From IMG/VR virus record IMGVR_UViG_3300042468_000162, positions 1 through 57,370 of that record: a DNA stretch of 57,370 nt; one strand, 5' to 3'. Positions 41,058 to 54,081 of this stretch are shown here, in pieces. Position numbers and translations under genes: made by a program. The notes under the pieces were generated by a model that saw only the letters and a program-made list of their open reading frames with translations, was not told the origin of the DNA and did no database searches. The stretch comes from a virus. Each line of letters opens with the position of its first letter. The stretch's first letter is position 1.

Positions 41058-41396
41058 TTACTTACCAAACTTTAATTTTTGTGACTTAGGGGGTTCCTTC
41101 TTAGATCCACTGGGACCTGCCCACAATCGTTTATCTGCCCAATATGCAGCGGATAATTTACCTTTAGCTATGTTCTTACCGTGCCTAGCCTTAAAGTTTT
41201 TACGAGCTTCTTCACTGTAATTGTGACCCATTGACGAATCACCGTAATGGATCAGCTTAACTGTGTCACCCTCTTTAGCTACTACCATCTCTTTCTTTCC
41301 TGGCTTATTAGACTTCTTAGGTTGGTTGTAGCCAGTAAACCCCAGCTTTTTATATCGTTCCGGTAGTGCTCGCTTCGCTGCGCTCTTTTTGTCCAC
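41058..41396 (-). CDS. Conserved basic phage protein (HYGDSSMGH...RHGKN...YWAxKxLW)
   Basis: A 112-residue basic protein using a GTG start preceded by AAAGGGG. The core KLIHYGDSSMGHNYSEEARK, NFKARHGKNIAKGK and SAAYWADKRLWAG resembles a domain I have seen in other aquatic phage proteins, with a G-D near strands and an RHG...YWA-K-W block. It is the second gene of the late block. Function unknown. Confidence 0.7.
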   Translation of the reverse strand: MDKKSAAKRALPERYKKLGFTGYNQPKKSNKPGKKEMVVAKEGDTVKLIHYGDSSMGHNYSEEARKNFKARHGKNIAKGKLSAAYWADKRLWAGPSGSKKEPPKSQKLKFGK

Positions 41397-42711: not shown

Positions 42712-42727
42712 TGTCGAACATTCGACA
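42712..42727. promoter_or_regulatory. Palindrome TGTCGAA-N2-TTCGACA, intergenic copy
   Basis: A perfect seven-base inverted repeat with a two-base centre, followed by CTAA. The same 20-base word (TGTCGAACATTCGACACTAA) recurs at 43562-43581, and a related copy (GTCGAATGTTCGAC then ACTAAA) is at 44008-44021. It has the size and symmetry of a dimeric repressor or activator site. Confidence 0.6.
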
Positions 42728-42859
42728 CTAACCATATCCCCCATTGCCAATGTCCAACATCGACCGTATATCAGCTCAAACCTACCATTCGTCGGCTGAA
42801 ATCGACCGTCTGTCGAAGTTGGCATGGCAATTGCAATAGGTCACCGGCTTTGGACACTT

Positions 42860-42953
42860 TACTCTCAGAGGTTTATGGGGACATGTATTTATCCCCTCAC
42901 TGAAAGTGAAGGGGAAATAAATACTGTCCCCTGTTTATAAACCTCAGAGAGTA
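42860..42953 (+). promoter_or_regulatory. 94-nt near-perfect hairpin leader
   Basis: The left arm starts at TACTCTCAGAGGTTTAT (42860) and runs through GGGGACATGTATTTA and CCCC-TCACT. The right arm (to 42953) is its reverse complement with a few mismatches and small bulges, closing on the loop GAA near 42903-42905. The right foot is directly followed by the ribosome site AAGGAG for the gene at 42966. A fully formed stem would hold the leader next to the ribosome site. Confidence 0.85.
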
Positions 42954-42965
42954 AGGAGTAGGAAA

Positions 42966-43739
42966 ATGGCACAATCGAACCTAGCAGTTATCAGCGACAA
43001 TGGCATGTTCAACGTCAAATCGGCAGTCAAGAACGCTACATTGCCGAAGGCAAAACCACCCATCAACGATGCAGTCATGTACAATGCCGAAGGCATCCTG
43101 CTCACAACGACAACGTATCAAGGCAATAGCCTTGGAGAAGCAATTGATGCTCAGGCTAAAGCCTACAAATCGATCAAGAAACAACAGAAAGCAGCTTTAG
43201 AAAAGCTGAAGGGTATCGGTGATGTCCTTAACTACGTTAGGTCGCTGTTCAAATCCGATGTGCTATTCGGTCAGTTTTTAATGAAAACTGAATTGTCCAT
43301 CATGTCAAGGCAAGATCGTTCCGATGCCATGTGGTTAGCGGACAATTGGAATGAAATCCAATTGCAAATGAAAAAGTTGGATATATCCTCTAGCTCTGCT
43401 AGCTATCTTCGCCAAGCAATCAGAAAAGCTACTGCTACTGTGCAGGAAAGCAAAGCTTCACCTGTGGTAGCAGTTGCTACTGTCGAACCCCAAGTCAAGC
43501 CTACTGCTACCACACAGGAAAGCAAAGCTTCACCTGTGGTAGAAAAGCCAGTTGCTGCTACTGTCGAACATTCGACACTAAAGCCTACTGTGCAGGAAAG
43601 CGAAGCTTCACCTGTGGTAGATACCCTTGAGATCATCGTAGATGATGCTGAAGCTTTCGCTGATTCAGTAGCTAGGGTAGCGAAAGCCGAAGGCTTAGAC
43701 TTGAATGCAATCATCGAAGCTTTGCTTAAGCGTATTTGA
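42966..43739 (+). CDS. Hypothetical protein, first gene of the rightward block, with internal repeats
   Basis: A 257-residue protein. Residues 1-150 are mixed, with SLGEAIDAQAKAYKSIKKQQ, then FGQFLMKTELSIMSRQDRSD and AMWLADNWNEIQ. Residues 155-222 contain three copies of QES(K/E)ASPVV separated by Val/Ala/Thr/Pro-rich spacers, forming a flexible linker. The end is an acidic helix (EIIVDDAEAFADSVARVAKA, then IIEALLKRI). The ATG at 42966 follows AAGGAG and the long hairpin. Being first after the control region and structurally regulated suggests an early takeover or replication role, but no family is recognised. Confidence 0.8.
   Translation: MAQSNLAVISDNGMFNVKSAVKNATLPKAKPPINDAVMYNAEGILLTTTTYQGNSLGEAIDAQAKAYKSIKKQQKAALEKLKGIGDVLNYVRSLFKSDVLFGQFLMKTELSIMSRQDRSDAMWLADNWNEIQLQMKKLDISSSSASYLRQAIRKATATVQESKASPVVAVATVEPQVKPTATTQESKASPVVEKPVAATVEHSTLKPTVQESEASPVVDTLEIIVDDAEAFADSVARVAKAEGLDLNAIIEALLKRI
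43443..43620 (+). repeat. Three 28-bp direct repeats within the 42966 gene
   Basis: Copies at 43443-43470, 43515-43542 and 43593-43620. The first two are identical over 28 bases and the third differs by one base. They encode QES(K/E)ASPVV. The stretch between copies 2 and 3 includes the palindrome at 43562-43577. Confidence 0.93.
43562..43577. promoter_or_regulatory. Palindrome TGTCGAA-N2-TTCGACA, coding copy
   Basis: Identical to the intergenic copy at 42712-42727, including the flanking CTAA, but inside the coding repeat linker, where it reads VEHST. The identity at DNA level in a coding context suggests either selection for the site or recent transfer. Confidence 0.55.
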
Positions 43740-43982: not shown

Positions 43983-44007
43983 CCTAGTTGCAAGCCAAGC
44001 TTCTACC

Positions 44008-44021
44008 GTCGAATGTTCGAC
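44008..44021. promoter_or_regulatory. Palindrome GTCGAATGTTCGAC
   Basis: A perfect 14-base palindrome of the same family as 42712 and 43562 in opposite centre orientation, 32 bases before the gene at 44053. A single half-site (GAATGTTCGACA) is at 44824. Confidence 0.55.
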
Positions 44022-44052
44022 ACTAAAACTCACCTGAAAGGATACACACACC

Positions 44053-52890: not shown

Positions 52891-53192
52891 ACCACACTCA
52901 AATCATACAAGCTGTAACTGCCACACCATTAACTGCTATCGATCTACAAAAGAAGTTTAAAGTACCACATGCCCGTGTAGTAGCTGTATTACAGTACATG
53001 CGTAAGCAAAACATGGTCATTGCAGTTAAGGTAGGTACTAAGTGGGCATGGACAGTGCCCGACTATGTACCCGAAGAAGCTGTCATTACGCAGCCTGAGT
53101 CTAAGAAAGAACGTATGAAGTTCCTATCAACTGTATTCAACAATTGGGGTAGGCAATCACATGAGGCAAGCCAAACGAACACGGATAGCTGA
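52887..53192 (+). CDS. Winged-helix DNA-binding protein
   Basis: 101 residues with a clear winged HTH: HTQIIQAVTATPLTAIDLQK, KFKVPHARVVAVLQYMRKQN and the wing VIAVKVGTKWAWTV, followed by a flexible acidic/basic tail. It is the only obvious DNA-binding regulator I can see beside the integrase gene, which it overlaps by 32 bases. It could act as excisionase or repressor, or control early genes. Confidence 0.7.
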   Translation: MNHTQIIQAVTATPLTAIDLQKKFKVPHARVVAVLQYMRKQNMVIAVKVGTKWAWTVPDYVPEEAVITQPESKKERMKFLSTVFNNWGRQSHEASQTNTDS

Positions 53193-54081
53193 TGCAGTAG
53201 AGCAGTACTACAAGTCACTTGAGTACCGATCACTCTCTCCACAAGCACAGAAAGATTATCGGTACTGTCTTAACACTTTCTTACAGACACCTCTCATGGG
53301 CAGGAAGGTAGAGGTTATGTACCTACAAACACTTACTACACCCTTAGCCCAACGTGCATACAACACTTGGGCTGAGAGAGGTGTACCTTTTGCTAATCAC
53401 ACCATGTCAGCTGCCTCTGTAGTATTCAATCATGCCATACGTCTGGGATACTGTGAGATAAATCCCTTCAGCAAGGTACTTAGAAGGCCCCACAAGCCAC
53501 GCAAAGTAGTCTGGACTAGGGAGGATATCACCCGCTTCCTAAACGTGGCTTATAGCTCGTTTAATACCCGTTCTGTGGGATTGATAGTTCAGATGGCATA
53601 CGAGTGGTGTCAGAGACTTGGGGATATGTCCAATCTTAAGTGGACTAACTACAATTTTGATACTAAAGTACTATCACTTGAGCAGTCAAAGCGTAGGGCT
53701 AGGGTAGAGTTACCTACAACGGAGGAGTTACATGAGATGTTAGTGCAGCAGAAGCAGGAAGTAGGCACAGATTATGTAGCTCCTCAGTGCCATAGCAATA
53801 GGATCTTTAACAAGCCTTACGATAAGTTTCAATTGGCACTCGTGGCAAGGAAAGTGATACGTAAGGCAGGGTTACCTGAAGAGCTACAGATTATGGATAT
53901 GAGAAGGACAGGCACGATGGAGATGGTCGATGCAGGTGTTTCGTTACCACAAATCATGTCAGTGACAGGACATGTAAGTCCTGGTTCAGTAACCCCTTAC
54001 ATGAAGAACACTTTGACAAGTGCTAAAAATGCTGCTAAGCTTCGCTTCACCAACACGGACAGTGTACATTTAAATGATTAA
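53161..54081 (+). CDS. Tyrosine recombinase / integrase
   Basis: 306 residues with an N-terminal SAM-like domain (SLSPQAQKDYRYCLNTFLQT) and a catalytic domain. Visible active-site residues: Arg in WCQRLGDMSNLKW (about 149), Lys in LEQSKRRARVELP, Arg in MDMRRTGTMEM, His in SVTGHVSPGS (about 271) and Tyr in VTPYMKNTL (about 280). The position normally held by His before RxxR-like motif (HDLRRT) is Met here. The gene lies inside the replication block, not beside an obvious att site. It may integrate the phage or resolve genome multimers. Confidence 0.9.
   Translation: MRQAKRTRIADAVEQYYKSLEYRSLSPQAQKDYRYCLNTFLQTPLMGRKVEVMYLQTLTTPLAQRAYNTWAERGVPFANHTMSAASVVFNHAIRLGYCEINPFSKVLRRPHKPRKVVWTREDITRFLNVAYSSFNTRSVGLIVQMAYEWCQRLGDMSNLKWTNYNFDTKVLSLEQSKRRARVELPTTEELHEMLVQQKQEVGTDYVAPQCHSNRIFNKPYDKFQLALVARKVIRKAGLPEELQIMDMRRTGTMEMVDAGVSLPQIMSVTGHVSPGSVTPYMKNTLTSAKNAAKLRFTNTDSVHLND

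What the first reader, a model, noticed from the sequence alone, without database searches (positions are those of the whole stretch)
42860..42953. 94-nt near-perfect hairpin as the leader of the first rightward gene
Arms of about 45 bases pair almost completely, with a three-base loop, ending directly at the ribosome site. Such a long stem is unusual for a phage leader. Possible roles: RNase III processing, translation switch, protein-binding autoregulation, transcription attenuation, or a hairpin origin / mobile-element remnant.
Basis: seen in the sequence. Interest (0 to 1): 0.8.

Follow-up and report, generated by a model that had tools for sequence, protein, structure and literature searches.

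The report
Repeated RNA hairpin in aquatic phage leaders
The long hairpin just before this phage's first rightward gene is real and is kept by compensating changes in many relatives; it belongs to an apparently undescribed family of RNA hairpins that sit in front of genes in several lineages of aquatic phages, probably marking where the messenger RNA is cut or protected.

Summary
The hairpin is confirmed. It is the most stable 94-nt stretch of the window (-53 kcal/mol, z -9.3). It is not quite perfect: 40 base pairs are interrupted by a 5' one-base bulge, 3' bulges of 1, 2 and 5 bases and one A.A mismatch. This layout recurs in relatives. The window is an HMO-2011-type podovirus. In relatives found by protein homology the arms diverge (5' arm identity as low as 21/45) yet pair again; none of 306 arm swaps pairs as well as the native arms. 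The element also occurs in HMO-2011 itself (unannotated there) and, by pattern and covariance-model searches, in unrelated phage contigs, with up to 10 copies per contig. Of 102 usable copies, 96 have a start codon with a ribosome site within 90 nt downstream on the same strand (12 on the opposite strand; 20% at random positions). No Rfam family matches. G.U pairs are almost absent (1.5% against 14% in terminator-like hairpins), which I cannot explain. Best explanation: a cis-acting mRNA processing or stabilising hairpin that works like the RNase III sites of T7; in this leader it also covers the ribosome site. Structure and covariation are shown; the enzyme and the effect are inferred.

The parts
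42858..42955 (+). Leader hairpin, whole element (as listed 42860-42953, extendable by about 2 nt each side)
42860..42876 (+). Lower stem P1, 5' arm (7 + 9 bp with 42937-42953; A.A mismatch 42867/42946)
42877..42891 (+). Middle stem P2, 5' arm (7 + 7 bp with 42918-42931; U bulge at 42884)
42892..42915 (+). Upper stem and apical domain: UCCCCU/AGGGGA, A bulge 42909, CACU-GAA-AGUG. Corresponds to the conserved core (tandem G.A in most other members)
42916..42917 (+). Conserved 3' bulge (AA; 1-4 nt in most relatives)
42932..42936 (+). 3' bulge of 5 nt (UGUUU), kept at 4-6 nt in freshwater leader copies
42953..42958 (+). Ribosome-binding site AAGGAG, largely paired into the base of the stem (mean unpaired probability 0.19)
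42966..43739 (+). First rightward gene, 257 aa, no Pfam or PHROG family; helical model of low confidence, no PDB match
42820..42835 (+). Sigma54-like -24/-12 element TGGCATGGCAATTGCA; predicted transcript start near 42846, about 12 nt before the stem
   Evidence: exact match, only one in window; same spacing in 12 of 12 members of two relative clades; start site is an inference

Best explanation
The hairpin is a cis-acting RNA element in the 5' leader of the rightward (early) operon. It belongs to a family of hairpins placed between or before genes in several aquatic phage lineages. It most likely acts as an RNase III-type processing and stabilising signal, as the R sites of T7 do: host RNase III cuts at or near the 3'-side bulges, giving the downstream gene a defined 5' end and the upstream RNA a structured 3' end. 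In leader copies like this one the lower stem also abuts or covers the ribosome site, so cutting or opening it would release translation of the first gene. Shown: structure, covariation, sense orientation, position, multiplicity, absence of a terminator U-tract. Inferred: transcription start, RNase III as the enzyme, cleavage position, effect on translation.
For: Stability. Independent folding of leader hairpins found by protein homology gives the same layout with different sequence; native arms -46.3 kcal/mol, swapped arms -22.8, 0 of 306 swaps as strong. Covariation: 98.8% of cells paired, 184 double changes against 41.5 in shuffles, score 0.552 against 0.141 and at most 0.138 in slid controls; smaller set 0.377 against 0.129. 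Sense orientation: 96 of 102 copies before a start codon with ribosome site, 12 antisense, 20% random; median 39 nt from core to start. Copies sit between the stop of one gene and the start of the next, up to 10 per contig. T7 R sites, folded here, have the same plan: upper stem of about 10 bp, loop mainly on the 3' side, lower stem, intercistronic; T7 R1.1 has an asymmetric 4/5 nt internal loop and lies between genes 1.0 and 1.1 (PMC6121014). Known HMO-2011-type hosts are alphaproteobacteria (PMC9038755), and an alphaproteobacterial RNase III needs longer dsRNA than the E. coli enzyme (PMC6121014).
Against: No cleavage data. The conserved tandem G.A apical domain is more sequence conservation than RNase III is known to need. 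G.U pairs are nearly absent (1.5%), whereas T7 sites contain U.G pairs in their stems. Some copies have only about 15 bp. The ribosome site is clearly covered in only 16 of 30 leader copies. Several HMO-2011-type isolates show no such hairpin.
Confidence: 0.42

Rival explanations
1. Protein-binding regulatory RNA: a phage or host RNA-binding protein recognises the apical domain (tandem G.A two pairs below the loop) and controls translation or stability of many phage genes as a regulon.
For: The apical domain is the most conserved part across lineages: 5'-UGA-NN-loop-NN-GAA, with AC/GU replaced by GU/AC in some copies. Many copies per contig.
Against: Core to start codon is about 39 nt and the ribosome site of internal copies is often free, so direct translational blocking is unlikely there. 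No shared candidate binding protein was found in a comparison of partial contigs.
Confidence: 0.25
2. Cis-acting antitermination RNA like the put sites of phage HK022: the transcribed hairpin binds RNA polymerase and lets it ignore terminators downstream.
For: In HMO-2011-type phages the leader copy lies near the start of the long early operon, close behind a probable promoter.
Against: Other lineages have up to 10 copies, one before each of many small genes, which antitermination does not need. Sequence similarity to put RNA was not tested.
Confidence: 0.13
3. DNA-level function: an extruded or single-stranded DNA hairpin acts as promoter (as for N4 virion RNA polymerase), origin or protein site.
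For: Near absence of G.U pairs (1.5% against 14.2% in terminator-like hairpins of the same loci) fits a constraint on DNA, where G.T is a mismatch. Tandem G.A is also stable in DNA (own knowledge).
Against: Strict sense orientation close before ribosome sites. No T7-type RNA polymerase in 14 records (positive control T7), though an N4-type virion polymerase was not searched for as such and many records are fragments.
Confidence: 0.1
4. Stable 5' hairpin that only protects the mRNA end from 5'-end-dependent decay, without cutting.
For: In the window the stem would start about 12 nt from the predicted transcript start (inferred).
Against: Internal, intercistronic copies are not at a primary transcript end as far as the gene layout shows; conserved bulges are not needed for this.
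Confidence: 0.1

Closest known systems
RNase III processing sites (R sites) of phage T7
   Same: Intercistronic or leader hairpins before early genes, several per genome, upper stem of about 10 bp followed by a loop mainly on the 3' side, then a lower stem (PMC6121014)
   Different: No sequence relation (model R1 finds nothing in the T7 early region); conserved tandem G.A; G.U pairs nearly absent; lower stem in HMO-2011-type leaders is much longer and reaches the ribosome site; cleavage not shown
Leader of phage lambda gene N (RNase III hairpin before the N ribosome site; own knowledge)
   Same: Long hairpin directly before the ribosome site of a first early gene, giving a route to control by processing
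   Different: No boxA/boxB looked for; first gene here has no recognised family; not a lambdoid phage
put antitermination RNAs of phage HK022 (own knowledge)
   Same: Structured RNA just behind an early promoter
   Different: Single long hairpin instead of two short ones; many copies before single genes in other lineages
N4 virion RNA polymerase hairpin promoters (own knowledge)
   Same: Short three-base loop on a hairpin before early genes
   Different: Stems of 15-40 bp instead of 5-7; covariation and sense placement before ribosome sites fit RNA

Membership tests
T7-type RNase III sites | Hairpin with asymmetric internal loop or 3' bulge between an upper and a lower stem | tested here: met
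T7-type RNase III sites | Located between or before genes, in sense orientation | tested here: met
   96 of 102 copies
T7-type RNase III sites | Cleaved by RNase III in vivo or in vitro | not testable with these tools
   needs RNA end mapping or enzyme assay
T7-type RNase III sites | Sequence homology with T7 sites | tested here: not met
   model R1 has no hit in the T7 early region
Intrinsic terminator / attenuator | U-tract directly after the stem | tested here: not met
   window sequence; 8 of 103 copies T-rich
Any Rfam family | Covariance-model match | tested here: not met
   window and ten relatives, no relevant match
Sigma54-dependent promoter (upstream element) | -24/-12 consensus TGGCAYR-N4-TTGCW with exact spacing | tested here: met
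   only exact site in the window; constant place in 12 of 12 relatives of two clades, absent in other clades
Sigma54-dependent promoter (upstream element) | Activator of the PF00158 type in the phage | tested here: not met
   none in the window; a host activator remains possible
put / nut antitermination sites | Terminator readthrough dependent on the RNA | not testable with these tools
   needs a reporter assay

The most novel reading that the evidence does not exclude
A new class of phage leader RNA, shared by unrelated aquatic phage lineages, in which a tandem-G.A apical domain on a pure Watson-Crick stem is read by one dedicated host or phage factor that sets RNA ends or expression of many early genes, and whose arms are kept complementary by a correction process that avoids G.U.
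Probability: 0.3. Interest if true: 0.8.

Novelty: new variant of a known kind. Interest (0 to 1): 0.62.

Why it matters
HMO-2011-type and HTVC023P-type phages are among the dominant groups in the ocean (PMC9038755, PMC12753301), and the papers checked say nothing about hairpins or RNA processing in them. A conserved RNA signal before many of their genes would be a handle on how these phages express genes in bacteria that are hard to grow, and it can be tested on HMO-2011 RNA. The near absence of G.U pairs in a strongly covarying RNA is unusual and worth an explanation.

Tried and rejected
Intrinsic terminator: no U-tract. Known RNA family: no Rfam match. Hairpin specific to the first gene: rejected, in L010, L011 and L014 the hairpin precedes a different small ORF, and second copies precede other genes. 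ORF1 as the binding protein: no family, low-confidence helical model, no PDB match; in distant ORF1 relatives L065-L072 no such hairpin was seen. Phage T7-type RNA polymerase promoter: no such polymerase found in 14 records. Ribosome-site blocking as the general function: only 16 of 30 leaders below 0.3 unpaired, and internal copies often free. Sequence-based MAFFT alignments misplace the stems and understate pairing, so the arm-swap test and per-sequence folding were used. The CM alignments A6 and A7 are fitted to the structure and lean towards it. Some copies were collected with a pattern that fixes the core, so core conservation there is partly by construction. Bacterial genomes: 3 matches to one core pattern in 257 Gb, none with the phage layout. 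Blast of two element sequences against named phages found only HMO-2011 convincingly. Literature searches found no description.

Full report
Observation. The stretch 42860-42953 folds at -53.1 kcal/mol, z -9.3 against shuffles, and is the most stable 94-nt stretch among 11,456 windows of both strands. The stem has 40 base pairs, a GAA loop, a U bulge on the 5' arm, 3' bulges of A, AA and UGUUU, and one A.A mismatch. It ends at the ribosome site AAGGAG of ORF 42966-43739. There is one copy in the window.

Where it lies. The window is a virus record of 57,370 bases. Its terminase is 76-79% identical over the aligned part to HMO-2011 and Roseobacter phage CRP-1, and its DNA polymerase about 60%: an HMO-2011-type podovirus. 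Leftward genes carry packaging and structure, rightward genes replication. The hairpin heads the rightward genes behind a largely non-coding divergent region of about 1.3 kb. Upstream, at 42820-42835, is an exact sigma54-type -24/-12 element, the only exact one in the window; in 12 of 12 relatives of two clades it stands 63-67 nt before the hairpin core. Other clades lack it, and marine relatives have a different conserved block near that place, so the sigma54 reading is likely but not secure. No sigma54 activator gene was found in the window.

Relatives and covariation. Relatives of ORF1 were fetched by protein homology, without regard to the hairpin. Most of the closer ones with enough upstream sequence have a long hairpin at the same place. 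Folding each on its own gives the same order of parts: loop, 2-4 pairs, a 3' GA bulge or tandem G.A, about six pairs rich in G-C, a 3' bulge of 1-4 nt, 12-15 pairs, usually a 3' bulge of 4-6 nt, about nine pairs, a mismatch or bulge, and seven or eight pairs. The sequences of the arms differ strongly: the 5' arm of the window shares as few as 21 of 45 positions with others. Native arms average -46.3 kcal/mol as duplexes, swapped arms -22.8, and none of 306 swaps equals the native partner. HMO-2011 itself has the hairpin before gp74, where nothing is annotated. CRP-1 and CRP-345 have a variant. Several other isolates do not show it.

A wider family. Four freshwater relatives have a second, shorter copy in the early operon, L016 a further one, and HMO-2011 a weak second candidate. 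Two core patterns match 91 stretches of viral contigs but only three in 257 billion bases of bacterial and archaeal genomes, none with the phage layout. A covariance model finds further copies, some without the CCCC core. Carriers include HMO-2011-type contigs, contigs with a portal protein 45-49% identical to HTVC023P-type pelagiphages, and two lineages with weak or no relatives among named phages. Contigs carry 1 to 10 copies. In one contig seven copies lie within 4 kb, mostly between consecutive small genes. Covariation is strong: 184 double changes against 41.5 in shuffles, score 0.552 against 0.141, slid controls at most 0.138. These alignments are fitted to the structure, so the arm-swap test above is the independent support.

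RNA or DNA. Of 102 copies with enough flank, 96 have a start codon with a ribosome site within 90 nt downstream on the same strand; 12 on the opposite strand; 20% at random positions. Where tandem G.A occurs it is on the sense strand. This argues for RNA. One fact does not fit easily: G.U pairs make up 1.5% of pairs against 14.2% in 69 terminator-like hairpins of the same loci; in the 23 leader copies 6 of about 896. Possible reasons are selection for stability, a role in DNA, or copying of one arm from the other during replication. I leave this open.

Mechanism. There is no U-tract, so it is not an intrinsic terminator. Position between genes, sense orientation, number of copies and the 3'-side bulge after about ten pairs resemble the RNase III sites of T7, which I folded for comparison (site positions from own knowledge) and which are described for R1.1 in PMC6121014. 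I therefore favour an RNA processing or stabilising signal, most likely cut by host RNase III. In the window the ribosome site is largely paired into the stem (0.19 unpaired); over 30 leaders 16 are below 0.3, against 9 of 26 internal copies. So gating of translation is plausible for this phage but not general. A specific binding protein is the main rival because the apical domain is so conserved.

Novelty. No Rfam match and no mention in the papers checked. I file it as a new variant of a known kind: it works like phage mRNA processing hairpins, but membership in the T7 class is not claimed because cleavage is untested and sequence relation is absent.

Noticed in passing
42712-42728, 43562-43578, 44007-44023: Palindrome TGTCGAANNTTCGACA, followed by CTAA, three times in the early region; expected 0.02 by chance. 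Found in most freshwater relatives, also inside ORF1 and after second hairpin copies. Possibly an operator.
   Followed up: partly
42820-42835: Exact sigma54-type promoter element before the early operon of a phage, kept at constant distance in two relative clades, duplicated in L009; unusual for a phage.
   Followed up: partly
42740-42815: Direct repeats of about 21 nt (ACCNRCCRTTCGTC) between the palindrome and the sigma54-like element, clearer in relatives L003, L004 and L007.
   Followed up: no
hairpins in L093, L101, L111 and relatives: Near absence of G.U pairs in the whole hairpin family compared with terminator-like hairpins in the same loci; unexplained.
   Followed up: partly
L033 and marine HMO-2011-type leaders (L160, L145, L162): Conserved block CGGCANGSGCAGAGGAT before the hairpin in marine relatives, near the place of the sigma54-like element of the freshwater ones.
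   Followed up: no
41058-41396, minus strand: Small protein near the start of the leftward genes is shared with otherwise unrelated hairpin-bearing contigs (41-46% identity) and other marine phages.
   Followed up: no
L013:6641, L017:6601, L018:6601, L020:5561, L021:681: Another strong long hairpin (CCTGTGCC...GGCACAGGGT, about 100 nt) downstream of ORF1 in distant relatives.
   Followed up: no
53161-54081: Tyrosine-recombinase (integrase) gene among replication genes; HMO-2011 and CRP-1 have one at a similar place.
   Followed up: no
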